45,827 nucleotides of DNA from Acetobacteraceae bacterium. Lineage in GTDB: Bacteria; Pseudomonadota; Alphaproteobacteria; Acetobacterales; Acetobacteraceae. The notes under the pieces were generated by a model, which was not told the origin of the DNA, did no database searches, and worked only from the letters and a program-made list of their open reading frames with translations. Position numbers and translations under genes: made by a program. Location: contig CANJJS010000034.1 in NCBI GenBank assembly GCA_947474705.1, positions 1-45,827 on the forward strand, read 5' to 3'. Every line of letters begins with the position of its first letter. The first letter of the stretch is position 1. Shown one piece after another: positions 29,908 to 40,385 of this stretch.

Positions 29908-30869
29908 ACAGTGCTCCGGTCCCGCTCCCGCGCGAGGTCTTCCAAATTCAAATCCAGCCGCGCCCGTTCGGCCTTTGTCCGGGCCGCGGCCATCCGTTCT
30001 CGCGTTGGGCCGCCGACGTCTGGGCAACGCGCGAGCAGTGCCTCGGTCGGGGCGAACTCGCCGCTGCAATAAAGCGCGAGATCGCAGCCCGCCGCCAGTG
30101 CCTGGACCGCGAGGCCGGCCGGTTCGCCCGCCAAGGCTTTCATGGCGAGGTCGTCGGTGACCAGCACGCCCTGAAACCCGATGCGGCGGCGGACGATCTC
30201 CCCGATGACGAACGGGGACAGCGTGGCGGGCAGATGGGGGTCCAAGGCCGGATAAACAATATGCGCGGTCATCATCCAGGGAAGATCGGCATTCCGCGCG
30301 AAGGGGAGAAAGTCGGCCTCCAGATCGTTGGCTTCCACCACCGGCAGCGACAAATGGCTGTCCACCCGCGCGCGCCCATGGCCAGGGGCGTGTTTGCCCA
30401 CGGGCATGACGCCGGCGGCCAACAGGCCCTCGGCGAAGGCACGGCCCAGCCGCGCCACGTCTTCCGGGTCTTCCGCCAGGGCGCGGTCGCCGATCACGTC
30501 GTGCGCGCCGGGCACGGACAGATCCAGCACCGGGGCGGCCACCGTGTCGAAGCCCGCCGCGGCGCACTGAACCCCGATCGCCGCGCCGCTCAACCAGGCC
30601 CGCCGCACCGTGCCCAAAGCCCGTCCCGGCGGATGCGCGATCCAGTGCGGCGGGCGCAAACGGGCGACACGCCCGCCCTCCTGATCCACCATCGTCACGG
30701 CACCCGCGGGCAACACACCCCGCAACTCCGCCATTAACAGGGACAACTGCCCAGGCGATTCCACGTTTCGCGCGAACAGGATAACGCCGGCCGGCGGCGA
30801 CGCCCGAAACAACGCAAGCTCCCCCGGCGTCAGCGAGGGCCCGGAGATCCCGACGATCGCGGCTTTCAT
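29904..30869 (-). CDS. nagZ: Beta-N-acetylhexosaminidase (glycoside hydrolase family 3)
   Basis: 321 residues, the short single-domain NagZ form. Diagnostic segments: VDQEGGRVARL (about residues 60-71), KHAPGHGRARVDSH with the His that acts as acid/base (about 155-170), and VLVTDDLAMKAL containing the nucleophilic Asp. NagZ removes GlcNAc from GlcNAc-anhydroMurNAc peptides in the cytoplasm during peptidoglycan recycling, downstream of lytic transglycosylases such as the one at 0.4-2.4 kb. The ATG at 30869 begins the family sequence (MKAAIVGISGPSLTP). This start codon and first eight or nine codons lie inside the outermost arm of the long palindrome at 30845-31180, which separates it from the SPOR gene upstream. 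Confidence 0.93.
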   Translation of the reverse strand: MKAAIVGISGPSLTPGELALFRASPPAGVILFARNVESPGQLSLLMAELRGVLPAGAVTMVDQEGGRVARLRPPHWIAHPPGRALGTVRRAWLSGAAIGVQCAAAGFDTVAAPVLDLSVPGAHDVIGDRALAEDPEDVARLGRAFAEGLLAAGVMPVGKHAPGHGRARVDSHLSLPVVEANDLEADFLPFARNADLPWMMTAHIVYPALDPHLPATLSPFVIGEIVRRRIGFQGVLVTDDLAMKALAGEPAGLAVQALAAGCDLALYCSGEFAPTEALLARCPDVGGPTRERMAAARTKAERARLDLNLEDLARERDRSTV

Positions 30870-31180
30870 GGGCGTGGGGCCTGTGTTTGGGGAAACCCCG
30901 GGGCGCTGCCCCGGCCCCCGCGAGGGGCTTTGCCCCTTCGAACCCCAGCAAAGGCACACCTTTGCAATCCAATCGTTTGGTTGGTGGTAAGAGGGGGCCT
31001 ACTCGGTTGTTCCAACGCCACGGTAGGCCCCCTCTTACCACCAACCAAATAAATGGGTTCCAAGGCCCGGCCTTGGCGGGGTCGAGGGGCGGAGCCCTCG
31101 TGGGGTCCGGGGCAAAGCCCCGGGACCTCCCGAAACACCGGCCTCACCCCCAAGAAAAACCGCGATCGTTCAGGACTCGG
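30845..31180. repeat. Long palindromic element, copy A
   Basis: Central arms 30976-31002 and 31023-31049 are a perfect 27-bp inverted repeat around a 20-base loop (TCGGTTGTTCCAACGCCACG). Outside them are a left hairpin with arms GCAAAGG/CCTTTGC, a right one with CCAAGGC/GCCTTGG, and on each side a hairpin CCGGGGC-N3-GCCCCGG (30898-30914 and 31107-31123). Beyond these, 30851-30900 and 31121-31170 mirror each other with about 80 percent identity at exactly symmetric distance. The outermost left arm includes the nagZ start codon, the right one reaches the stop codon of the SPOR gene. No protein-coding potential or transposase is visible. Copies B to D share the conserved parts but not the central or outer stems. 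Confidence 0.9.
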
Positions 31181-31847
31181 CCACGCTGCACTGGGTACCT
31201 TTGGCTTTCAGTTTGTCGCAGAAGATTTTGGCCTGGGCGGCATCGGCGAAGCCGCCGGTGCGGAGGCGCCACGCGTTGGCGCCTTGTTGGTTCGTTTTCA
31301 GGAACAAGGGCCGGCGTTGCGCCAGCAGGTCCGGCGATTTTTTGGCCAGTTTGTCCCAGGCGGCCTGGAGTTCGTTTTCGGTTTTGGCGTTCGCGAGTTG
31401 TACGCTGAATGTTTTCGCGACCGGCGCCGGCGGTGGCGGCGCCACGGGGCGCGCGGGATCCGGGGCAGCGCGCAGCGCGTGCGGATTGGGCTCCTCGGTC
31501 GAAGGCGCGAGCCGGCTTTCGTTGGGATTGGATTGTTTCGTCTCGGGTCCGACCTGCATCCCGCCGGCGTTATCCGGTTTCACCCGCAGCGGCCGCGCGT
31601 CCGGCTGCACTACCGGCAGATCGGCGCCGGAATGGCCGCCGGTCAGGCTGTAGATCGCGATCCCCGCGAGAATGACCACGCCGCCCAGCCCCATGCCATA
31701 GAGCAGCTTCATCGTGCCGGGGTCGATCCCCCGATCGTCGTCGTGCGATGCTTTGTACATCGGACCCGAGAGCTGGGGCCCGGACATGGTTCCCGACAGG
31801 GGGCCTGAGGCGCTGACCTGATCCGACACGATGGCTTCTCCCGACAT
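31170..31847 (-). CDS. SPOR-domain membrane protein
   Basis: 225 residues from the ATG at 31847; a GTG at 31868 is an alternative start. One membrane helix at about residues 47-65 (MGLGGVVILAGIAIYSL) follows a polar cytoplasmic segment of about 45 residues. A proline-rich linker leads to a C-terminal SPOR domain (about 140-225) with KTFSVQLANAKTENELQAAW, AWRLRTGGFADAAQAKIFC and LKAKGTQCSV. SPOR domains bind glycan strands lacking stem peptides at the division septum, so a role in envelope constriction is likely. The gene lies between argS and nagZ, as in many alphaproteobacteria. Confidence 0.87.
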   Translation of the reverse strand: MSGEAIVSDQVSASGPLSGTMSGPQLSGPMYKASHDDDRGIDPGTMKLLYGMGLGGVVILAGIAIYSLTGGHSGADLPVVQPDARPLRVKPDNAGGMQVGPETKQSNPNESRLAPSTEEPNPHALRAAPDPARPVAPPPPAPVAKTFSVQLANAKTENELQAAWDKLAKKSPDLLAQRRPLFLKTNQQGANAWRLRTGGFADAAQAKIFCDKLKAKGTQCSVAES

Positions 31848-31877
31848 TTTGTCCCCGGGAGGGGCCACCCGGGACGT

Positions 31878-33662
31878 TCAGCGCATTTCCTCGACCGGTT
31901 CGACCCCCATGACCCGCAATCCCGACCGGATCGCGATGGCCGTCGCCGCGACCAGAGCCAGCCTCGCCCGTGTTTCGACGGGCCGGTCGGCCTGAAGGAA
32001 TCGGAGGGTGGAATCGTCTCGTCCCCGGTTCCACAGCATATGAAAGTCGCCCGCCAGGTCATAGAGAAAAAACGCAATTCTGTGCGGTTCGCGCGCGATC
32101 GCCGCGGCTTCCACGGTGCGCGGCCAGGACGCGAGGCGGCGGATCAGGGCGGTGTCGGCCTCGTCGGTCAGGCTGGACAGGTCGGCGTCGGCCAGGGCTT
32201 CGGGTGTCAGGCTGGCGGCGGGTTGGGCCTCGGCGGCGGCGCGCAGGACGGAGCGGCAGCGGGCGTGCGCGTATTGCACGTAAAAGGCGGGGTTTTCGCG
32301 GGTCTGGGCGATCGCCTGATCCAGGTCGAACTCCATCTGCGCGTCGGCTTTCCGGAACAGCATGGTGAAGCGGACGGCGTCGCGGCCGACCTCGTCCAGC
32401 AGATCGCTGAGCGTGACATAGGTGCCGGCGCGCTTGGACATGCGCACGGGCTCGCCGCCTCGGACGATGTGGACGATCTGGCACAACACCGCCTCGAACT
32501 TCACGCGGTCCTGGCTGATGGCGCGGACGGCGGCCTTCATGCGGGGGACGTAGCCGCCGTGATCGGCGCCGAGAACGTCGATCAGGATGTCGTAATTTCG
32601 AGAAACCTTATCGTTGTGGTAGGCGATGTCGTTGGCGAAATAGGTGTTGGAGCCGTCGGATTTGCGTAAGGGACGATCGACGTCGTCGCCGAATTCGGTG
32701 GCGCGGAACAGGGTTTGCGGGCGGGGTTCCCAGTCGTCGGGAGTTTTGCCTTTTGGCGGTTCCAGCACGCCTTCGTAGATCAGGCCGTCCGCTTCCAGTT
32801 TCGCGAGCATCGCGTCGGCCGCGCCTGAGGCGACGAGCGCGCGTTCGGAACTGAACACATCCTGGTCCACGCCAAGCCGTTTCAGGTCCACGCGGATCTC
32901 GCGCATCATCAGGTCGATGGTCTTTTCGCGGACGGTGTCGAGCCACAGGTCCGGCGGCGCGACGGTTTTGTCCGGCGTGGCGAAGGCGGTGCCGTGCGCG
33001 CGGGCGAGTTCCTCGCCGACGGGGATGAGGTAATCTCCGCGGTATTGCAGGCCGCCGGGGACCGCCGCGGAGAATTCCTCCTCGGTCATCGCCGTGCCGA
33101 TGGCCTGCAAATATCGCCAGTATGCGGCCCATGCGAGTGCGGCGACCTGCGCGCCGGCGTCGTTGATGTAGTATTCCTTGGTGACGTTGTACCCGGCTTT
33201 GGCCAACAGATTGGCCAGCGCGTCGCCGACCACGGCACCGCGGCAATGGCCGATATGCATGGGGCCCGTGGGATTGGCGGAGACGTATTCCACATTGACC
33301 CGCGTGGCTTTGCCGAGAGTGGAATCGCCGTAGGCTTCTCCGGCGCGCAACACGACAGGCAGGACGGCACGGAACACGGCGGGGTCGAGCGTCAGGTTCA
33401 CGAAGCCGGGACCGGCGACGTCGGCTTTTTGGATCGCCGGATCGGCGCGGAGGGCTTCGGCGATGGCGGCGGCCAGCTTCGCCGGAGCCTGGCGCGCGGC
33501 CTTGGCGCTGACCATCGCCGCGTTGGTCGCCATGTCGCCATGCGCGGTGTCGCGGGTCGGCGTGACCTCCACGCGCGCGGCGATGTCCGGCGGCAAATCG
33601 GGCACGGCGGCCGCGAGGGCGGCGAGGACGGTCTGGCGGATCGAGGCGAAGAGGTCGGTCAT
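31878..33662 (-). CDS. argS: Arginyl-tRNA synthetase
   Basis: 594 residues, a class I synthetase. The HIGH motif is at 136-139 in NPTGPMHIGHCRGAVVGD, and the KMSKS-equivalent loop is MSKRAGTYVTL (about 400-410), the modified form common in ArgRS. The N-terminal additional domain (residues 1-110) recognises the tRNA D-loop, and the C-terminal DALR domain with YVQYAHARCRSVLR binds the anticodon. It charges tRNA-Arg with arginine. It lies 30 bp upstream of the SPOR gene and is probably the first gene of, or upstream in, the minus-strand housekeeping run; the 321-bp gap to dgt contains a dispersed palindromic repeat. Confidence 0.96.
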   Translation of the reverse strand: MTDLFASIRQTVLAALAAAVPDLPPDIAARVEVTPTRDTAHGDMATNAAMVSAKAARQAPAKLAAAIAEALRADPAIQKADVAGPGFVNLTLDPAVFRAVLPVVLRAGEAYGDSTLGKATRVNVEYVSANPTGPMHIGHCRGAVVGDALANLLAKAGYNVTKEYYINDAGAQVAALAWAAYWRYLQAIGTAMTEEEFSAAVPGGLQYRGDYLIPVGEELARAHGTAFATPDKTVAPPDLWLDTVREKTIDLMMREIRVDLKRLGVDQDVFSSERALVASGAADAMLAKLEADGLIYEGVLEPPKGKTPDDWEPRPQTLFRATEFGDDVDRPLRKSDGSNTYFANDIAYHNDKVSRNYDILIDVLGADHGGYVPRMKAAVRAISQDRVKFEAVLCQIVHIVRGGEPVRMSKRAGTYVTLSDLLDEVGRDAVRFTMLFRKADAQMEFDLDQAIAQTRENPAFYVQYAHARCRSVLRAAAEAQPAASLTPEALADADLSSLTDEADTALIRRLASWPRTVEAAAIAREPHRIAFFLYDLAGDFHMLWNRGRDDSTLRFLQADRPVETRARLALVAATAIAIRSGLRVMGVEPVEEMR

Positions 33663-33850
33663 GGGGCGGGAACAGCGCTTTCAGGCGAAATGGGCGCGCG
33701 GGATATCGTGGCGAGGCCCGAGGGTGCGGGCATCCTTACGCAAAGGGGGCGCGGGGCGGCAAGGGGCTGGTTCGGCGGAGGGCGTTGGGGCAGGCGACGG
33801 ACGAAAATAAGAGGTCCGTTTGAGGCACGTGCCGCCACATACGCCGTCAT

Positions 33851-33926
33851 GGTCCGCGAAGGCGGGCCATCCACGACCTGCGGTGCCGGACTTGCGAAAG
33901 ACGTGGCTGGTCCGCCTTCGCGGACC
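33851..33926. repeat. Dispersed 25-bp inverted repeat (GTCCGCGAAGGCGGAC type)
   Basis: Arms 33851-33875 and 33902-33926 pair over 25 bp with two mismatches, around a 26-base loop; the core is GGTCCGCGAAGGCGG with its complement. It lies in the 321-bp gap between the dgt stop and the argS start, both on the minus strand. I recall this core as an abundant intergenic repeat in Rhodospirillales genomes, which cannot be checked here. Unlike copies A to D, symmetry ends within a few bases of the arms. The rest of 33663-33983 shows nothing recognisable. Confidence 0.75.
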
Positions 33927-33983
33927 CTGACGAGGGGGCGGGTGCGTGTTCCGCGGACGGCCTGGTTAATGTCGTGCGCCGCC

Positions 33984-35144
33984 TTATCCGTTCACCGCGA
34001 TATCCGTCAGCCGCTTGTGCTCGTCCATCGCGTAACGGTCGGTCATCCCCGCGACATAGTCGCCGACCACGGTCGCGGCGCGCTGTGTCCCGCCCTCCCC
34101 CGCCCGCGCGCGCCAGTCGTCGGGCAGCATGGAGGGATCGCCGTGGAGAATGCGAAACACTTCCTCGGTCAGGCGGCGGGCTTTCGCGCTCATGCGGTTA
34201 ACACGCCAGTGGCGGTACATGCGGGCGAACAGGAAGTCCTTAATGGCCTGGTTGGCCTCGGCGACCGGCGGGCTGAAGCCAACGACGCGGGTGCGGGAGC
34301 GGCGGATCGCATCGACATCCTTTGGCGCCAGTTTGGCCAGGCGCGCGCGTGTTTCCACGAGGAGATCTGTCACGAGGCGGTTGATCACGCGCCGGATCGT
34401 TTCGTGCCGCAGGCGAGGCGGCGGCATGTCGAGGCTGGCCTGGCGCGCCTCCGCCAAGGCCTCGCCCACGATCGGGAGGTGACGGAGATCGTCGGGCGTG
34501 AACAAGCGCGCGCGGAGTCCGTCGTCGAGGTCGTGGGCGTGGTAGGCGATGTCGTCCGCCTGCGCCGCGACCTGCGCCTCCGCGCTGGCGTGCGTGTGCA
34601 GGTCGAGCTTATGCCGGGCGTTGTAATCGGCGATGTAGGCGGGTGGATCGCGCAGGGGGCCGTTGTGTTTGGCGAGGCCTTCCAGCGTCTCCCAGGTCAG
34701 GTTCAGCCCGTCCCAGCCCGCGTATCGGCTTTCCAGCAGCGTCACGATCCGCAGGCTTTGCGCATTGTGGTCGAAGCCGCCAAAGGGTTTCATGCCGATG
34801 TTGAGCGCTTCCTCGCCCGCGTGGCCGAAGGGCGGGTGGCCCAGATCGTGCGCCAGGGCCAAGGCTTCGGTCAGGTCCTCGTCGAGGCCCAAAGCGCGGG
34901 CGATGGAGCGGGCGATTTGCGCGACCTCGATGGAATGGGTCAGGCGGGTGCGGTAGAAATCGCCCTCGTGATTGACGAACACCTGGGTTTTATACTGAAG
35001 CTTTCGGAAGGCCGAGCTGTGCACGATGCGATCGCGGTCGCGCTGCCAGGGCGAGCGTCCGGGACCCTCGGGTTCCGCGTGCAAGCGGCCGCGGGCGGTG
35101 GCGTCTTGCACCGCGTAGGGCGCGAGGGGAATGCGGCCTGTCAT
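33984..35144 (-). CDS. dgt: Deoxyguanosinetriphosphate triphosphohydrolase-like protein
   Basis: 386 residues of the HD superfamily. Family start RIVHSSAFRKLQYKTQVF is followed by the metal ligands: His70 in RTRLTHSIEVAQIA and His99-Asp100 in ALAHDLGHPPFGHAGE, and a later conserved region ADDIAYHAHDLDDGL. The family removes triphosphate from dGTP or other dNTPs; this shorter, Dgt type 2 form is the usual alphaproteobacterial one. The ATG at 35144 gives MTGRIPLAPYA; the frame is open far upstream but through a palindrome, so this start is preferred. It is divergent from the erpA-like gene, with palindrome copy B filling the 363 bp between them. Confidence 0.92.
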   Translation of the reverse strand: MTGRIPLAPYAVQDATARGRLHAEPEGPGRSPWQRDRDRIVHSSAFRKLQYKTQVFVNHEGDFYRTRLTHSIEVAQIARSIARALGLDEDLTEALALAHDLGHPPFGHAGEEALNIGMKPFGGFDHNAQSLRIVTLLESRYAGWDGLNLTWETLEGLAKHNGPLRDPPAYIADYNARHKLDLHTHASAEAQVAAQADDIAYHAHDLDDGLRARLFTPDDLRHLPIVGEALAEARQASLDMPPPRLRHETIRRVINRLVTDLLVETRARLAKLAPKDVDAIRRSRTRVVGFSPPVAEANQAIKDFLFARMYRHWRVNRMSAKARRLTEEVFRILHGDPSMLPDDWRARAGEGGTQRAATVVGDYVAGMTDRYAMDEHKRLTDIAVNG

Positions 35145-35162
35145 GCAACCGCGCTTACACGA

Positions 35163-35496
35163 GGGTGCCCCTGGGTTCAACCGAAGGACGATCGGGTGGG
35201 GGCGTGGTTGGCGCCGGGGCTCCGCCCCAGACCCCGCGAGGGGCTTTGCCCCTTCGAACCCCACCAGGGGAACGTCCCCTGGACCGCGATCGATTTTGGT
35301 AGGCGAACAAGGGAGCGCCCACGCGGACGTTGAAACGTCTCGGATGGCCCTCCCTTGTTCGCCTACCAAACCCCGGGGTTCCAAGGGCGAGCCCTTGGCG
35401 GGGTCGAGGGGCGGAGCCCTCGCGGGGTCCGGGGCAAAGCCCCGGCGCCAACCACACCTCGCCCGATCCCCCTTCAATTCCCCGCCGGAACACCCT
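35163..35496. repeat. Long palindromic element, copy B
   Basis: Perfect 21-bp central arms 35295-35315 and 35350-35370; the loop contains the smaller hairpin GACGTTGAAACGTC. Left internal hairpin CCAGGGG/CCCCTGG, right CCAAGGG/CCCTTGG, and outer hairpins 35214-35230 and 35429-35445. The 12 bases 35204-35215 are perfectly mirrored by 35444-35455, then GATCGGG and, further out, AGGGTG (35163-35168) against CACCCT (35491-35496), all with the same centre of symmetry. It occupies almost the whole space between divergent dgt and the erpA-like gene, so both promoters must lie in or beside it. Confidence 0.9.
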
Positions 35497-35507
35497 ATGT
35501 ATGCCGC

Positions 35508-35837
35508 ATGGGACAATTCGCCGTGACAGATCGGGCCGCGGCCCGGATCGCTGAAATCGCCGCCGCCGAGGGCAACGGCCTCGCGCTGCGGATCTCCGTG
35601 CTCGCGGGTGGGTGCAGCGGGTTTCAATATAAATTCGAGTTGGACAAAGACGTCCAGCCGGACGACCTGATCATCGAGAAATCCAGCGCCCGGGTTTTGG
35701 TCGATCCCACCAGCCTGGACCTTCTGGAAGGTTCGGAACTCGACTTCGCCGAGGCTCTGATGGGCAGCCATTTCGCGGTGAAAAACCCGAACGCGACCTC
35801 ATCCTGCGGCTGCGGGACCAGTTTTTCCATCGAGTAA
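35508..35837 (+). CDS. erpA: Iron-sulfur cluster insertion protein, A-type (ErpA/IscA)
   Basis: 109 residues. The three conserved cysteines of A-type carriers are present: Cys36 in LAGGCSGFQYKFE and Cys100/Cys102 in SSCGCGTSFSIE. The spacing fits ErpA/IscA, which carry 2Fe-2S or 4Fe-4S clusters to target enzymes. ErpA rather than IscA is preferred because no isc/suf genes are nearby and in alphaproteobacteria a lone erpA often lies divergent from dgt. The ATG at 35508 starts the family sequence and lies 12 bp beyond palindrome B. It is convergent with the HU gene. Confidence 0.88.
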   Translation: MGQFAVTDRAAARIAEIAAAEGNGLALRISVLAGGCSGFQYKFELDKDVQPDDLIIEKSSARVLVDPTSLDLLEGSELDFAEALMGSHFAVKNPNATSSCGCGTSFSIE

Positions 35838-35889
35838 CAACACTGGTCCGCGCGCGCTGAAAAACCGGGAAACGCCTCGGCGCTCCCCG

Positions 35890-35916
35890 GTCACGTCAGC
35901 CCGCCTGACCCGTGAC
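35890..35916. terminator. Hairpin between convergent erpA and HU genes
   Basis: Outer arms GTCACG (35890-35895) and CGTGAC (35911-35916) with an inner TCAG/CTGA pair and a CCCGC loop. It is 52 bp after the erpA stop and directly abuts the HU stop. A second possible stem, ACCGGG with CCCGGT, lies just upstream. No T-run is present, so termination strength is uncertain. Confidence 0.45.
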
Positions 35917-35917
35917 G

Positions 35918-36280
35918 TCAGACTGATTCTTTCAGCTCTTTCGCCGGCCGGAACGCGATCTTCTTGCTGGCGGCGATCTGGATCTGCGCGCCGGTGGCCG
36001 GGTTGCGGCCCATGCGCGCGGCGCGTTCCCGCACCTGCAGGATCCCAAGCCCCGTCAGACGGACCTTATCGCCCTGCTTCAGATGCTGGGCGGTCGCGGT
36101 CACCAGATCGTCCAGCACCGCCTCCGCCAGTTTCTTCGAAATATCGTGCGCCGCGGCCACGCCCGCCGCGAGTTGTTTCAATGTCACCGTCGGCTGAGCG
36201 GCGGCTTTCTTCGCCGGAGCGGCCTTCTTCGCGGGCGCGGCCGCTTTTTTCGCCGGAGCGGCCTTCTTTGCTGCGGGCAT
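35918..36280 (-). CDS. HU-family DNA-binding protein with lysine/alanine-rich N-terminal tail
   Basis: 120 residues. Residues 2-30 are a basic tail of AAKKA/PAKKA repeats; the HU fold follows from about residue 32 (TVTLKQLAAGVAAAHDISKK) through LTGLGILQVRERAARMGRNP and ATGAQIQIAASKKIAFRPAK, where GRNPATG is the DNA-inserting beta arm. HU proteins bend and compact DNA as dimers. Tailed HU proteins are known in several GC-rich lineages, where the tail increases DNA bridging. The ATG at 36280 places the tail immediately after the start. Possibly co-transcribed with the thioesterase 141 bp upstream, though that gap has a weak hairpin. Confidence 0.9.
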   Translation of the reverse strand: MPAAKKAAPAKKAAAPAKKAAPAKKAAAQPTVTLKQLAAGVAAAHDISKKLAEAVLDDLVTATAQHLKQGDKVRLTGLGILQVRERAARMGRNPATGAQIQIAASKKIAFRPAKELKESV

Positions 36281-36421
36281 GGGATTCCTCACTGTTGAGC
36301 ACTGGCACCATGGCAACCTCACCATAGGCGACCGAGTCGGGCAACAGATTCTTGCTTTCAATCAAGGAATTTCGACGTTTTTCCGCGACCGCGGCGAAAA
36401 ATCCCGCGCCTGGCGGGAGAT

Positions 36422-36856
36422 TCAGGCCAGTCCCCCCATCTCCCGCAACCGGACGGCGACATTTTCCGCGATCGGATTCGGCCGCGAGGTTTCGCGATCC
36501 ACGCAAACACTCCGGTTCATCGCCACCGCGACACAGCCCGAATCGTCGTAAATCCCATAGCCCAGCGAAAACGACGTCCGCCCCACGTGAATCGGCGCCA
36601 GTTCGACGGTCAGGACACCCGGATACTCCGCCGAACGCCGGTAGCGAATCGTCAATTCCGCGATCGGCCAGGTCACCGACTCCGGCAAACCCAGTTCGCG
36701 ATCCAACAGGCGCCGGAACGCGAGCCGCGCTTCCTCCAGATAAATCAAATAACGCGCGTGATTCACATGCTCGTTGGGATCGAGATCCGAGTAACGGATT
36801 TCGCTCCGCGTCCGGAACCGGTTGGGATCGGACACCAGAAACGGATCGAGGTTCAT
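36422..36856 (-). CDS. Acyl-CoA thioesterase, 4HBT hotdog fold
   Basis: 144 residues. The signature SEIRYSDLDPNEHVNHARYL (about residues 18-37) has the Asp that acts as catalytic residue in 4-hydroxybenzoyl-CoA thioesterase-like enzymes, followed by FRRLLDRELG and a basic RYRRSAEYPGVL strand. The fold is a single hotdog domain. The family hydrolyses acyl-CoA thioesters; the acyl group is not predictable. The ATG at 36856 overlaps the stop of the upstream HAD gene by 4 nt (ATGA), so the two are translationally coupled. It ends 141 bp before the HU gene. Confidence 0.86.
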   Translation of the reverse strand: MNLDPFLVSDPNRFRTRSEIRYSDLDPNEHVNHARYLIYLEEARLAFRRLLDRELGLPESVTWPIAELTIRYRRSAEYPGVLTVELAPIHVGRTSFSLGYGIYDDSGCVAVAMNRSVCVDRETSRPNPIAENVAVRLREMGGLA

Positions 36857-37581
36857 ACGCCCATGCTCTCCGGTTCGGTCAACGCCGCCGCCAGTTCGGA
36901 AAAATCCTTCACGATCAGATCGGGCTGGTGCGGCGTCTCGCCGAACGGCCGCCGGCGCCGGTCGATGAATGCCGTCCGCATGCCGTAAGACTTCGCGCCG
37001 ATGCAGTCGAAGGCGTGGTTGGCGACGAACAAACAACTCGAACGATCGAGGCCGATCAGTTCCTCCGCCTTGGCGTAGGTCTTCCAGTGCGGCTTGAAAT
37101 AACCGGCCTCCTGCACCGAAATCACCCGGTCGAACGGGAATCCGATATGCGGCGCCGCCGCTTCCAACATGTCGCGATCGCCATTCGACAGAATCACCAG
37201 CTTGTACCCCGCCGCCCGCAGCCGATGCAGCGACTCCAGAACATCCGGAAACGGCGCCAAATTCTCGATCTCCGAGACCAGCCAGCGCACCTCGTCCTGG
37301 GTGTAGGAAAAGCCGATGCGGTCCATCACCTGCGACACCGCGCGATGACCGATCTGCCGGTACGGCGTGTGCCCGCGATCGCACAAGGCGTCGATCATCG
37401 AGTTCTCGTAATGCGTGCGCCGCCACCAGGTCACGAAGCTGTTCGCGCTGCCATGCCAGCCCTTGGCAAACAAAAACGGCTCGACCACCTCGGTCAAACC
37501 CTTCTGCATGTCCACGATCGTGCCATACTGATCGAACACCAACGCGCGAACCTCGCGCCGCAACACCTCGACACGCTCCAT
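36853..37581 (-). CDS. Haloacid dehalogenase type II-like hydrolase (HAD)
   Basis: 242 residues. HAD motif I is VFDQYGTIVD with nucleophile Asp17; motif II is LVILSNGDRDML; motif III includes FKPHWKTYAKA; motif IV is FVANHAFDCIGAKSYGM. The DxYGT form and the N-x-x-F-D motif IV are those of L-2-haloacid dehalogenases, which release halide from short 2-halo acids, but many such proteins have other substrates. The ATG at 37581 is preferred, preceded by GGGGGA; an ATG at 37611 is possible. It overlaps the thioesterase start by 4 nt. Palindrome C lies between it and the upstream lutC. Confidence 0.88.
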   Translation of the reverse strand: MERVEVLRREVRALVFDQYGTIVDMQKGLTEVVEPFLFAKGWHGSANSFVTWWRRTHYENSMIDALCDRGHTPYRQIGHRAVSQVMDRIGFSYTQDEVRWLVSEIENLAPFPDVLESLHRLRAAGYKLVILSNGDRDMLEAAAPHIGFPFDRVISVQEAGYFKPHWKTYAKAEELIGLDRSSCLFVANHAFDCIGAKSYGMRTAFIDRRRRPFGETPHQPDLIVKDFSELAAALTEPESMGV

Positions 37582-37619
37582 GCCAACATCCCCCGGACTC
37601 GATGCCCGCATCTGACGCG

Positions 37620-37920
37620 GGCGGAGGCGGATGGCAAGGGATGGAGGCGGTGGAAGCCCTGGAGCGTTGCCCCAGACCCCACGGGGGCTTTGCCCCTCGA
37701 CCCCACCAGGGCGGGGGCCCTGGACCCGTTTAATGGGTGAGATGAAGAAGGGGGCCTACTCGGAAGTTTCAACGTCGAGGATGGCCCCCTTCTTCATCTC
37801 ACCCAAAAGATGGCATCCAAGGCCCTGCCTTGGCGGGTTCGAAGGGCAGCGCCCTCGCGGGGTCCGGGGCAGCGCCCCGGCGCTTCAACCGTCTCCGTCC
37901 TCTATCATCACCACGTGCAG
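37620..37920. repeat. Long palindromic element, copy C
   Basis: Perfect 23-bp central arms 37734-37756 and 37783-37805 around a 26-base loop. Internal hairpins: left CCAGGGC/GCCCTGG, right CCAAGGC/GCCTTGG. Outer hairpins are at 37658-37675 and 37864-37880. Outermost arms 37640-37657 and 37882-37899 pair over 18 bp with three mismatches. The right outermost arm is coding sequence: it contains the last four codons and stop of lutC, and symmetry decays further into that gene. No coding capacity of its own is evident. Confidence 0.9.
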
Positions 37921-38559
37921 CCGCCGGGGTCCGTGCGCGCCGAGTTCCAAGGCTTGTTCGATATCGGCGGAGCGCGAGGGGCCGGTCACCAGCATGACGT
38001 TGCGAGGCATGCCGCCCATTTCGGCGCGCAGCAGATCCCAGGCCTCTTCGTAAGCGCCGACGACGCGGGAGGCGCGGAGCACCACGATTTCGGTGTCGGT
38101 CAGGACGTTCAGCGTGGTCGGGCGGACGGGGGCGGAAGGCAGCATCAGGGTGCCGGTTTCCGCGATCGCGGCGAATCCATGCTGAATGCTGACCATGTCG
38201 GTGCCCTCGGCGCGTCCCTCGCGGATCTCCAACAGCGGGCGGGACGACCAGGGGATGGCGCGCAGGTCCGGGTGCGGGGCCATGATGGGGTTGGCGGGCA
38301 GGTTCTGCGCGGCGAGGTAATCCGCGACGGCGGCGGGCACGTCCGCGGCCGTCGCGACCCGCGCGACGGTGCCGAACTCTTTTTCGACGTTGGCGGCGAA
38401 GAGGTCGACCTGGCCGGGGTGCGGCAGGCGGCTCCGGGCGGGGATTGTGTGTCTCGGGTGGCGTTCCAGCCGTCCGCGCAGCATGGCCTGCTGGTCCTCT
38501 GGCAGGGGGCCGCGCCGCAGGCCGCGGCGGAGCGCGCCCAGAATCGCGTCCTTGGTCAT
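37885..38559 (-). CDS. lutC: Lactate utilization protein C (LutC/YkgG)
   Basis: 224 residues of the LUD domain family. Recognisable parts are VDLFAANVEKEFGTVARV near residue 50, an AETGTLMLPSAPVRPTTLNV (about 130-149) nucleotide-like segment conserved in LutB and LutC, and LVTGPSRSADIEQALELGAHG near the end. LutC is a subunit of the LutABC complex that oxidises L-lactate to pyruvate. The ATG overlaps the lutB stop as ATGA. Its last four codons lie in the outer arm of palindrome C. LutA is not encoded upstream, where lutB begins. Confidence 0.9.
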   Translation of the reverse strand: MTKDAILGALRRGLRRGPLPEDQQAMLRGRLERHPRHTIPARSRLPHPGQVDLFAANVEKEFGTVARVATAADVPAAVADYLAAQNLPANPIMAPHPDLRAIPWSSRPLLEIREGRAEGTDMVSIQHGFAAIAETGTLMLPSAPVRPTTLNVLTDTEIVVLRASRVVGAYEEAWDLLRAEMGGMPRNVMLVTGPSRSADIEQALELGAHGPRRLHVVMIEDGDG

Positions 38560-39989
38560 GTCAGGGCCTTCGCGCGTTGCTCGCGGGCGTAGCGGGCGAA
38601 GAACGTGTCGCCTTCCGGAGCCGGGAGGTCGCGTGCCGCGGTCCATCCGCCCGCCAGCGGCATGGAGGTAAATCGTCCCTTTTTTCGGCCCAGCCACCCC
38701 AGGCCCAAAGCGGCGGCGCGGGTCGCGAGGCGGTAGAGGCTGGGCCGGCGGGCGAAGAAGGCCCACAGACCGAGGTTCCAGCGGACGGCGGCGGGGGTGA
38801 GATGACGCTCGAATTCGCGTTCCCGCCAGTGACGCATCAGTTTCGGCAAGGGAATGCGCACGGGGCACACGCTCTCGCACTTGCCGCAGAAGGTGGAGGC
38901 GTTCGGCAACTGTCCCGCTTGTTTCACGCCGATCAGGCTGGGGGTCAGCACGGAGCCCATCGGACCCGGATAGACCCAGCCATAGGCGTGGCCGCCGATG
39001 GCGCCGTAGACCGGGCAGTGGTTCATGCAGGCGGCGCAGCGGATGCAGCGGAGCATGTCCTGGAACTCGGTGCCGATCATCGCGCTCCGGCCGTTGTCGA
39101 CCAGCACGACGTGGTATTCTTCCGGCCCATCCAGATCGCCGGGCCGCCGCGCGCCGGTCGAGAATGTCGTGTAAACCGAGAAATCCTGACCCGTGGCGGA
39201 GCGCGCGAGGACCCGCAGCAGCGAGGTGCAATCCTCGATGGTCGGCACCATTTTCTCGATGCTGGCCAGCACGATGTGGACTTTTGGCAGGGTCTGGGTC
39301 AGGTCGCCGTTGCCCTCGTTCGTGACGATGACGGAGGAACCGGTTTCCGCGATCAGGAAATTCGCGCCGGTGATGCCGACATCGGCGGCCAGGAAGCTGG
39401 ACCGCAATTTCGTCCGCGCTTCCGTCAGAATATCCCGTCTTTCGGAAAAAACCCGGTCGGCCGGAAGGTCGGTATGGGATTTCCGGAAGGCCTCCTCCCA
39501 GTCGTCCATGTTCAGATGGAACGCGGGGGCGATGATGTGACTCGGCAGTTCGTCGCGAAGCTGGATGATGTATTCGCCGAGATCGGTTTCGACCGGCGTG
39601 ATCCCGTGTTGTTCCAGATGGTGGTTGATGGCGAGTTCCTCGCCGATCATCGACTTGCCCTTGGTGACCGTGCGCGCCCCCGCCTTCTGGCAGATGGCGA
39701 GCACCGCCGCCCGCGCCTGATCGGCGTCGGCGCACCAGTGCACTGTGCCCCCGGCGGCGACGACCTTGCGCTCGTACTCCTCCAGATAGAAATCCAGATT
39801 GGTCAGCGTGTGGTTCTTGATGTCGCGGGCGGTGTCGCGCAATTGCTCGAATTCCGGCAACCCCGCCACGGCGGAAGCGCGCCGCGCGATGAAACTGGTG
39901 CCGCTGCGGGCCAGCGCCCGTTGGAGACCGGCATCGCCCAACGCGCGATGGGCATTTTCCTTGAACGCGGATGAGGTCGCGACGTGCAT
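38556..39989 (-). CDS. lutB: Lactate utilization iron-sulfur protein B (LutB)
   Basis: 477 residues. An N-terminal LUD domain (about residues 60-300; AETGSSVIVTNEGNGD at 214-229) is followed by a two-cluster ferredoxin segment: Cys315, Cys318, Cys321, Cys325 (CIRCAACMNHCPVYG) and Cys368, Cys371, Cys375 (CGKCESVCPV), with a last cysteine or altered ligand elsewhere. LutB carries electrons within the L-lactate oxidising LutABC complex. The ATG at 39989 has AAGGAG at ideal spacing. It is first in the lutBC pair; palindrome D lies between it and the divergent glycosyltransferase. Absence of an adjacent lutA is unusual. Confidence 0.92.
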   Translation of the reverse strand: MHVATSSAFKENAHRALGDAGLQRALARSGTSFIARRASAVAGLPEFEQLRDTARDIKNHTLTNLDFYLEEYERKVVAAGGTVHWCADADQARAAVLAICQKAGARTVTKGKSMIGEELAINHHLEQHGITPVETDLGEYIIQLRDELPSHIIAPAFHLNMDDWEEAFRKSHTDLPADRVFSERRDILTEARTKLRSSFLAADVGITGANFLIAETGSSVIVTNEGNGDLTQTLPKVHIVLASIEKMVPTIEDCTSLLRVLARSATGQDFSVYTTFSTGARRPGDLDGPEEYHVVLVDNGRSAMIGTEFQDMLRCIRCAACMNHCPVYGAIGGHAYGWVYPGPMGSVLTPSLIGVKQAGQLPNASTFCGKCESVCPVRIPLPKLMRHWREREFERHLTPAAVRWNLGLWAFFARRPSLYRLATRAAALGLGWLGRKKGRFTSMPLAGGWTAARDLPAPEGDTFFARYAREQRAKALT

Positions 39990-40009
39990 GGCAACTCCTT
40001 CGCCGCGAC

Positions 40010-40350
40010 CATACCCGCCCGGCGCGGGAATGTCAGGCCTGGTGGAAGCGGTGGCGCGGCGGAGATGCCGGGGCTTTGCCCCGGACCCCACGAGGGCTCC
40101 GCCCTTCGAACCCGCCAGGGGAACGTCCCCTGGACCGCGATCGATTTGGCGGGTTGTTAAGGGAGGGCCATGCGAGGCTGTTTAAACCTCCGTGGAAGGC
40201 CCTCCCTTAACAACCCGCCACCCCGGGGTTCCAAGGGCGAGCCCTTGGTGGGGTTCGAAGGGGCAAAGCCCCTCGCGGGGCCTGGGGCGGCGCCCCAGCG
40301 CTTCGGCCGCTCCGCCGCCTCCAACCAGGCCCAGGCTTTCGCCGCCGCCG
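40010..40350. repeat. Long palindromic element, copy D
   Basis: Perfect 23-bp central arms 40147-40169 and 40198-40220 around a 28-base loop containing GAGG and CCTC. Left internal hairpin CCAGGGG/CCCCTGG is shared with copy B, as is the following GACCGCGATCGATTT. Outer hairpins: left 40068-40084 (CCGGGGC/GCCCCGG) and right 40281-40298 (CTGGGGC/GCCCCAG), the latter changed on both sides of one pair. Outermost arms around 40036-40067 and 40299-40331 are copy-specific and mirror each other; GGCCTGGT at 40036-40043 pairs with 40324-40331 at exact symmetry. It lies between divergent lutB and the glycosyltransferase. The remainder of 39990-40385 holds nothing else recognisable. Confidence 0.9.
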
Positions 40351-40385
40351 TGGGGCGTGGCAAAGAGCGGGCGGGGTCGGGGGCG

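What the first reader, a model, noticed from the sequence alone, without database searches (positions are those of the whole stretch)
30845..40350. Family of four long palindromes with conserved tips and copy-specific stems
Copies A (30845-31180), B (35163-35496), C (37620-37920) and D (40010-40350) share one design: a conserved apical segment of about 32 nt (GTTNNAAC at its centre, GGATGGCC or similar at its edge), a perfect 21-27 bp stem whose sequence differs completely between copies, then conserved small hairpins. Internal hairpins covary: CCAGGGG/CCCCTGG in B and D, GCAAAGG/CCTTTGC in A, CCAGGGC/GCCCTGG in C. Perfect pairing with unrelated stem sequences cannot be simple copying. Either structure is selected, as in a large folded RNA, or a mechanism such as template switching or hairpin-primed repair keeps rewriting one arm from the other. 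No coding region or transposase is present, and all four lie within 9.5 kb and upstream of a gene start.
Basis: partly seen in the sequence, partly recalled or inferred. Interest (0 to 1): 0.88.

Follow-up and report, generated by a model that had tools for sequence, protein, structure and literature searches.

The report
Self-rewriting hairpin repeats that copy neighbours
The four palindromes belong to a family of dozens of non-coding hairpin elements in one group of acetic-acid-type bacteria, and their matching arms look maintained by DNA copying between arms and between copies, a process that also seems to stamp upside-down copies of neighbouring DNA, including ends of genes, on the other side of many elements.

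Summary
The palindromes are real. They are four of at least 40 copies in this genome, with more in related species. Each is about 230 nt: three small hairpins per arm around a long central hairpin. Stems are not simply copy-specific: 40 copies carry 30 distinct stem strings in a few shared classes. But 975 of 990 central pairs are Watson-Crick and 4 are G-T; of the departures from the commonest pair, 231 cells change on both sides and 11 on one.

New here: the inverted repetition continues outside the element, in unrelated neighbouring DNA. In 33 of 108 testable copies the two flanks match in inverted orientation above the 99th percentile of between-copy comparisons; in direct orientation 1 of 108 does. 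Copy A carries, just after the SPOR gene's stop, a degraded inverted copy of the neighbouring nagZ-like gene's first codons. Between two species about 92% identical at the sox site, orthologous elements have exchanged stems and tips, and some swapped arms.

Best explanation: DNA-level hairpin copying (template switching or palindrome-centred inverted duplication) plus exchange among copies, rather than selection on an RNA. How the elements spread is unknown; no RAYT partner fits.

The parts
30896..31123 (.). Copy A of the element (H1 to H1')
   Evidence: matches 39 other places in the genome
30976..31049 (.). Copy A central hairpin: 27-bp perfect stem, 20-nt tip
30854..30888 (.). Copy A left outer inverted repeat; contains the start codon and first codons of the GH3 (nagZ-like, name recalled) gene on the minus strand; native side
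   Evidence: inverted score 26; between-copy 99th percentile 14; these codons are conserved in L096, L099 and L094; family
31133..31168 (.). Copy A right outer inverted repeat: degraded inverted copy of the nagZ-like start region, directly after the stop codon of the SPOR gene
35214..35445 (.). Copy B of the element, between the HD-domain (dNTPase-like) gene and the Fe-S biosynthesis gene (divergent)
35295..35370 (.). Copy B central hairpin: 25 bp with one mismatch
35153..35210 (.). Copy B left outer inverted repeat (partner 35449-35504); weak
   Evidence: score 15, just over the threshold of 14; joined flanks score 15, only at the 95th percentile of random stretches
35449..35504 (.). Copy B right outer inverted repeat; weak
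37658..37880 (.). Copy C of the element, between the HAD hydrolase gene and the lutC-like (LUD) gene
37734..37805 (.). Copy C central hairpin: 23-bp perfect stem
   Evidence: outer flanks not significantly inverted (score 12 against threshold 14)
40068..40298 (.). Copy D of the element, between the lutB-like gene and a divergent gene
40147..40220 (.). Copy D central hairpin: 23-bp perfect stem
40009..40063 (.). Copy D left outer inverted repeat (partner 40303-40360)
   Evidence: score 19; joined flanks 23 against 7 at the one empty site examined, G042
40303..40360 (.). Copy D right outer inverted repeat

Best explanation
A genus-level family of non-coding, intergenic DNA repeats, each a nest of seven hairpins that together form one giant interrupted palindrome. 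SHOWN: high copy number; near-perfect, two-sided covariation; stem classes shared within a genome; replacement of stems and tips, and some arm swaps, at orthologous sites; absence of the central hairpin from one of two orthologues at some sites; and flanks that are inverted copies of each other around many elements, in some cases with a conserved native side. INFERRED: during replication or repair a strand carrying the palindrome folds back on itself (or pairs with the sister in inverted orientation) and is extended on its own other arm. Switches inside the element make arms match and turn inner parts round. Switches at its outer edge copy some tens of nt of one neighbour in inverted form before synthesis returns to the original template. 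Exchange among dispersed copies spreads the resulting stem variants. The host's apparent lack of a canonical SbcD hairpin nuclease may let such palindromes persist. The mode of spread is unknown. The elements look selfish or neutral; no cellular function was found.
For: 40 copies in the genome. 975 of 990 stem pairs are Watson-Crick, 4 G-T, 11 other. 231 two-sided against 11 one-sided departures in 964 cells. Outer flanks inverted above the 99th percentile in 33 of 108 copies against 1 of 108 in direct orientation; 29 of 72 against 0 of 72 with hairpin-defined borders; own genome, first test, 36 of 40 copies: within-copy mean 17.6, between-copy 8.1, sd 2.1. Empty orthologous sites score 7-16; joined flanks of the own copies score 36 (sox), 23 (D), 22 (L049) and 15 (B); random window stretches have a 99th percentile of 19. 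Copy A: an inverted copy of native nagZ-like codons lies directly after the SPOR stop. Site L049: the left flank is partly conserved in relatives and the right flank is its inverted copy. G013/G040: arms swapped in 3 of 8, stem pairs changed in 6 of 8. SbcD model over its cut-off in 0 of 32 genomes, 8 of 14 controls. Precedents: palindrome-centred inverted duplication at a 246-bp interrupted palindrome in E. coli lacking SbcCD and RecA (PMC3315005: abstract and passages); template switching homogenises arms and inverts spacers (PMC8604942: abstract; PMC8794818: abstract and passages).
Against: By genome, outer inverted repeats exceed the threshold in 18 of 40 (own), 9 of 30 (G013), 5 of 24 (G040) and 1 of 14 (G016) copies; with hairpin-defined borders 0 of 9 in G040. 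Moving the fixed border out to 100 nt lowers the total to 23 of 107, with 1 direct. Copy C is not significant and copy B marginal. Joined sox flanks of G040 score 18, under the random 99th percentile of 19. In the G013/G040 sox pair the two flanks drift separately, so flank copying looks like discrete rare events, perhaps at insertion, rather than continuous rewriting. Of 37 changed stem pairs between orthologues, 12 are not clean two-sided changes. Exchange between copies could account for much of the paired change without arm-to-arm copying. All 32 genomes have sub-threshold SbcD-like hits, and the own one is an Mre11/SbcD-like protein. No reads, experiment or named strain were available.
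Confidence: 0.6

Rival explanations
1. A mobile MITE- or REP-like element whose copies evolve in concert: copies exchange sequence by ordinary gene conversion in either orientation, and inverted flanks arise once, as a by-product of insertion.
For: Stem classes are shared within a genome; stems and tips are replaced between G013 and G040; the sox flanks are alike in G013 and G040 and drift independently; empty sites exist.
Against: No partner transposase found: of the transposases only the Y1 (RAYT-type) family was searched, and it is absent from G013, G040, G016 and G004 (G013 is only 64% and G016 84% complete). No direct repetition shows in the 60-nt flanks (1 of 108), though duplications of a few bases would be missed. 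Gene conversion alone does not create an inverted copy of unique flanking DNA.
Confidence: 0.25
2. A large structured non-coding RNA under selection for pairing.
For: Very strong two-sided covariation.
Against: Hardly any G-T or one-sided intermediates; pairing continues into neighbouring gene ends; tip sequence and orientation vary; no orientation rule (20 tandem, 13 divergent, 6 convergent of 39 classified); no Rfam family at gathering score and only microRNA-precursor hits below their gathering scores.
Confidence: 0.08
3. Insertion of an ordinary element into pre-existing palindromes such as bidirectional terminators.
For: Would give inverted flanks without copying. Sox empties L317, L318 and L322 score 16, just over the random 95th percentile of 15.
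Against: The other empty loci at the sox, L049, B and D sites score 7-14, within the random range. D rests on one empty locus, and two of the 13 sox loci (L322, L326) gave no soxD. Only 6 of 39 copies lie between convergent genes.
Confidence: 0.05
4. Assembly artefact (fold-back chimaeras).
For: Several contigs end inside these elements, two G013 tips contain N (L436, L458), and inverted flanks resemble chimaeric reads.
Against: The inverted flanks are diverged rather than identical, and the sox flanks recur in the separate assemblies of G013 and G040.
Confidence: 0.02

Closest known systems
REP / BIME / REPIN elements with RAYT transposases
   Same: Dispersed, intergenic, palindromic, in many copies; inverted pairs of hairpins (general knowledge and search listings).
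   Different: About 230 nt with seven hairpins; no Y1 transposase in several carrier genomes; inverted copies of flanking DNA. GTAG-tagged ends were not tested.
CGTC-tagged palindromic repeats of alphaproteobacteria (PMC3733652, passages read)
   Same: Alphaproteobacterial hairpin repeats without a dedicated transposase.
   Different: REPs are 20-40 bp by that paper's abstract; it reports CGTC repeats missing from Acetobacteraceae.
Quasipalindrome template-switch mutation (PMC8794818, abstract and passages; PMC8604942, abstract)
   Same: Arm homogenisation, multi-base compensatory change and spacer inversion; patterns of these kinds are seen here.
   Different: Described there as separate mutations in RNA genes and yeast genes; here it would act on a whole repeat family, with copying that runs out into the flanks.
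Palindrome-centred inverted duplication in E. coli lacking SbcCD and RecA (PMC3315005, abstract and passages)
   Same: Interrupted palindrome of similar size (246 bp); hairpin end formation; neighbouring DNA becomes an inverted duplicate around the palindrome.
   Different: There the duplications are large chromosome duplications; here they are tracts of tens of nt that end inside the intergenic region or a gene end.
Repetitive hairpin-forming elements of sponge mitochondria (PMC2800124, search listing and start of abstract only)
   Same: Hairpin repeats in intergenic regions.
   Different: Organellar; flank copying was not looked up.

Membership tests
REP/RAYT system | RAYT-type Y1 transposase present in carrier genomes | tested here: not met
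   Y1_Tnp in 5 of 32 genomes; none in G013, G040, G016 or G004 (G013 64%, G016 84% complete); the own single hit lies in an IS200-like locus in which a search for the H1 hairpin pattern found nothing
REP/RAYT system | Short (20-40 bp) palindromic unit | tested here: not met
   unit is about 230 nt with seven hairpins
REP/RAYT system | GTAG tag at one end | not tested
   no formal search for the tag
MITE | Terminal inverted repeats with direct target-site duplication | tested here: inconclusive
   arms are inverted repeats; direct-orientation flank similarity in 1 of 108 copies; duplications of a few bases would be missed
MITE | Ends shared with an autonomous transposon in the same genome | not tested
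   only Y1 transposases were searched
Structured ncRNA family | Match to a described Rfam family | tested here: not met
Structured ncRNA family | Expressed transcript | not testable with these tools
   no RNA-seq
Template-switch (quasipalindrome) products | Multi-base two-sided changes with few one-sided intermediates | tested here: met
   (231 against 11 cells); between orthologues 25 of 37 changed pairs two-sided, 12 not
Template-switch (quasipalindrome) products | Inversion of inner segments between repeat arms | tested here: met
   arms swapped in 3 of 8 two-flank orthologous pairs, one by alignment score and two judged by eye from hairpin type
Palindrome-centred inverted duplication | Neighbouring unique DNA present in inverted form on the other side | tested here: met
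Palindrome-centred inverted duplication | Host lacks SbcCD | tested here: inconclusive
   no SbcD over the cut-off in 32 genomes, all 32 with sub-threshold hits; the own one is an Mre11/SbcD-like protein below all cut-offs; SbcC and RecA not searched

The most novel reading that the evidence does not exclude
A transposase-free hairpin repeat that lives off the host's own replication and repair: fold-back copying keeps its arms matched, turns its inner parts round, creates new stem sequences and, when it overruns the edge, prints inverted copies of adjacent gene ends across the element. Such families would be a natural record of palindrome-centred inverted duplication over evolutionary time in bacteria without canonical SbcD, and could spread by the same fold-back and template-switch route.
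Probability: 0.3. Interest if true: 0.85.

Novelty: new variant of a known kind. Interest (0 to 1): 0.72.

Why it matters
Two-sided covariation is often taken as proof of a functional RNA. Here is a bacterial repeat family with textbook covariation that is better explained by DNA copying, with spill-over into neighbouring DNA as an internal check that selection on an element's RNA would not readily mimic. If right, it gives many natural examples of short inverted duplication at palindromes, which the E. coli work cited studied with an introduced palindrome, and shows that the process can reach the ends of genes.

Tried and rejected
RAYT mobilisation was rejected as a general explanation. Known RNA families were rejected (the sub-threshold microRNA hits are likely what any long hairpin gives). 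Terminator function as the main role was not supported (6 of 39 convergent). Pre-existing palindromes at target sites were rejected for the sox, L049 and D sites; at B the own flanks are too weak to say.

For the own-genome sox site I first read the SoxD tail as overwritten by the soxA start. Translation of relatives shows that both gene ends remain family-like in the own genome, so the direction there is unsettled. In G013 and G040 the last residues of SoxD look like the inverted soxA start. SoxD was found in 17 of 20 loci examined (L322, L325 and L326 gave none). A first attempt at this translation used a poor motif and gave nonsense.

Gene calls for neighbour orientation come from a rough codon score of my own (1 copy of 40 unclassified). 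The hairpin-border method loses copies (72 of 80 bounded; 9 of 29 for G040 and 19 of 32 for G013, where 0 and 7 exceeded the threshold), so I repeated the flank test with fixed offsets; moving the offset to 100 nt lowers the count to 23 of 107, with 1 direct. One-flank orthologous pairs were left out of the final eight, as was L421/L450, where no central hairpin was found in G040.

The eight paper searches listed no title or abstract that describes this family or flank copying at a bacterial repeat family; that library lacks most subscription journals.

Full report
WHAT IS THERE. The four palindromes exist. From H1 to H1' they span 30896-31123, 35214-35445, 37658-37880 and 40068-40298. Each has three small hairpins on the left, a long central hairpin and three small hairpins on the right, the two arms being imperfect inverted copies of each other. 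A search of the whole genome with copy A listed 40 distinct places, with only 40 of 200 first-look candidates scored, so 40 is a lower bound. The four window copies and the 36 others were read with flanks. In one search, 17 of 40 genomes matched: our own and 16 of 23 same-genus genomes, and none of the 16 from other families of the class. Among 80 named contigs around arginyl-tRNA synthetase relatives, L095 (an Acetobacteraceae-type MAG) has a full copy and L109 a 56-nt match. The nearest relatives by that protein include Acetobacteraceae and Rhodopila MAGs; the genus is not named by the tools.

STEMS. Over 40 copies the central stems hold 990 pairs: 975 Watson-Crick, 4 G-T and 11 others. In an alignment of 25 columns and 964 cells, 231 cells differ from the commonest pair on both sides and 11 on one side. 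There are 30 distinct left-strand stem strings in 40 copies, in a few classes, some differing only in length; one 25-nt strand occurs five times and one 24-nt strand four times.

THE FLANKS ARE INVERTED TOO. Beyond the outermost small hairpins, DNA differs from copy to copy, yet left and right flanks of the same copy tend to match in inverted orientation. A first test on 36 of the 40 own copies gave a within-copy mean of 17.6 against 8.1 between copies (sd 2.1). With hairpin-defined borders 72 of 80 copies from seven genomes could be tested: 29 exceed the 99th percentile of 1858 between-copy comparisons, and in direct orientation none does. With fixed borders 108 copies from four genomes could be tested (7 dropped for short contigs; 11 copies of four other genomes left out as too few): 33 exceed the 99th percentile inverted and 1 direct (own 18 of 40, G013 9 of 30, G040 5 of 24, G016 1 of 14); with borders 8 nt further out, 23 of 107 and 1. 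A separate hairpin-border run gave 7 of 19 in G013 and 0 of 9 in G040. Of the window copies, A (26), D (19) and B (15) exceed the threshold of 14, and C (12) does not. A longer gapped alignment without a null gives A 31, D 24, C 21 and B 20.

WHICH SIDE IS THE COPY. In A the left flank is the start of the GH3 (nagZ-like) gene, with codons conserved in L096, L099 and L094, and the right flank is a degraded inverted copy that begins directly after the SPOR stop codon (families). At site L049 the left flank is partly conserved in G042, G018 and G004, and the right flank is its inverted copy. At the sox site of G013 and G040 the soxA start is family-like and the last SoxD residues read as its inverted copy; in the own genome the direction is unsettled (sox gene names are recalled from the protein motifs). 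Empty orthologous sites are not markedly palindromic: sox 8-16 (13 loci), L049 7-12 (18 loci), B 8-11 (7 loci) and D 7 (1 locus), against own joined flanks of 36, 22, 15 and 23; the joined sox flanks of G013 and G040 score 23 and 18; random window stretches have a mean of 11.3, a 95th percentile of 15 and a 99th percentile of 19. B and the G040 sox site are therefore not outstanding by this cruder measure.

CHANGE BETWEEN SPECIES. G013 and G040 are about 92% identical around the sox site, with flank identities of about 79-96% at the other sites used, and both carry tens of copies. Eight orthologous elements with both flanks matched and the central hairpin present in both were compared; in one (L415) the two G040 flanks lie on two contigs, and in one (L436) the G013 tip contains N. 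Two show no changed stem pair; six do. Of 200 aligned stem pairs 37 changed, 25 of them on both sides with pairing kept and 12 otherwise. In three of eight the arms have changed places relative to the flanks (the sox pair by alignment score; L427/L438 and L415/L380 by hairpin type, judged by eye); in the sox pair the tip kept its orientation while the arms swapped. At two further sites G013 lacks the central hairpin that G040 has (L469, L470). Flanks in the sox pair drift separately.

MECHANISM. The inner changes need arm-to-arm copying, exchange among copies, or both. The outer inverted repeats need copying of unique DNA in inverted form. One process, fold-back or inverted-template synthesis at a giant palindrome, would account for arm matching, inner inversions, loss of the central hairpin and flank copies of tens of nt; exchange among copies adds the shared stem classes. 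Template switching with such outcomes is described (PMC8794818, PMC8604942), and palindrome-centred inverted duplication was shown in E. coli at a 246-bp interrupted palindrome without SbcCD and RecA (PMC3315005). None of 32 genomes has SbcD over its cut-off, against 8 of 14 controls, though all 32 have sub-threshold hits and the own one is an Mre11/SbcD-like protein. That is permissive, not proof. How copies reach new sites is not explained.

WHAT IT IS NOT. Not a described RNA. Not generally RAYT-driven. Not mainly terminators (20 tandem, 13 divergent, 6 convergent of 39 classified; no element centre inside a predicted gene, by rough gene calls).

VERDICT. A real, genus-level family of hairpin repeats of a known general kind, with an unusual and well-supported trait: inverted copies of neighbouring DNA around many copies. 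The mechanism is inferred.

Noticed in passing
window 33845-33932: A different 88-nt imperfect hairpin between the argS and HD-domain genes, not of this family.
   Followed up: no
L469 720-960 and L470 790-1010 (G013) against L440 and L388 (G040): Orthologous elements in which G013 lacks the central hairpin and the arms are joined near H3.
   Followed up: partly
L446, L448, L463, L464, L468 (contig ends): Contigs in these assemblies end inside the elements, so short-read drafts probably undercount them.
   Followed up: no
L474 (G000:C60:30000-31348): An IS200-like Y1 transposase in the own genome, with its own GC-rich hairpin nearby; a search for the H1 hairpin pattern of this family found nothing there.
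   Followed up: partly
L181 about 532-791 (G048): An element with another stem beside the lutC-like gene, where copy C lies in the window; the gene on the other side differs, so possibly an independent insertion.
   Followed up: partly
L206 1350-1520 (G004): A short tandem repeat (about 16-17 nt, several copies) at the empty site of copy B.
   Followed up: no
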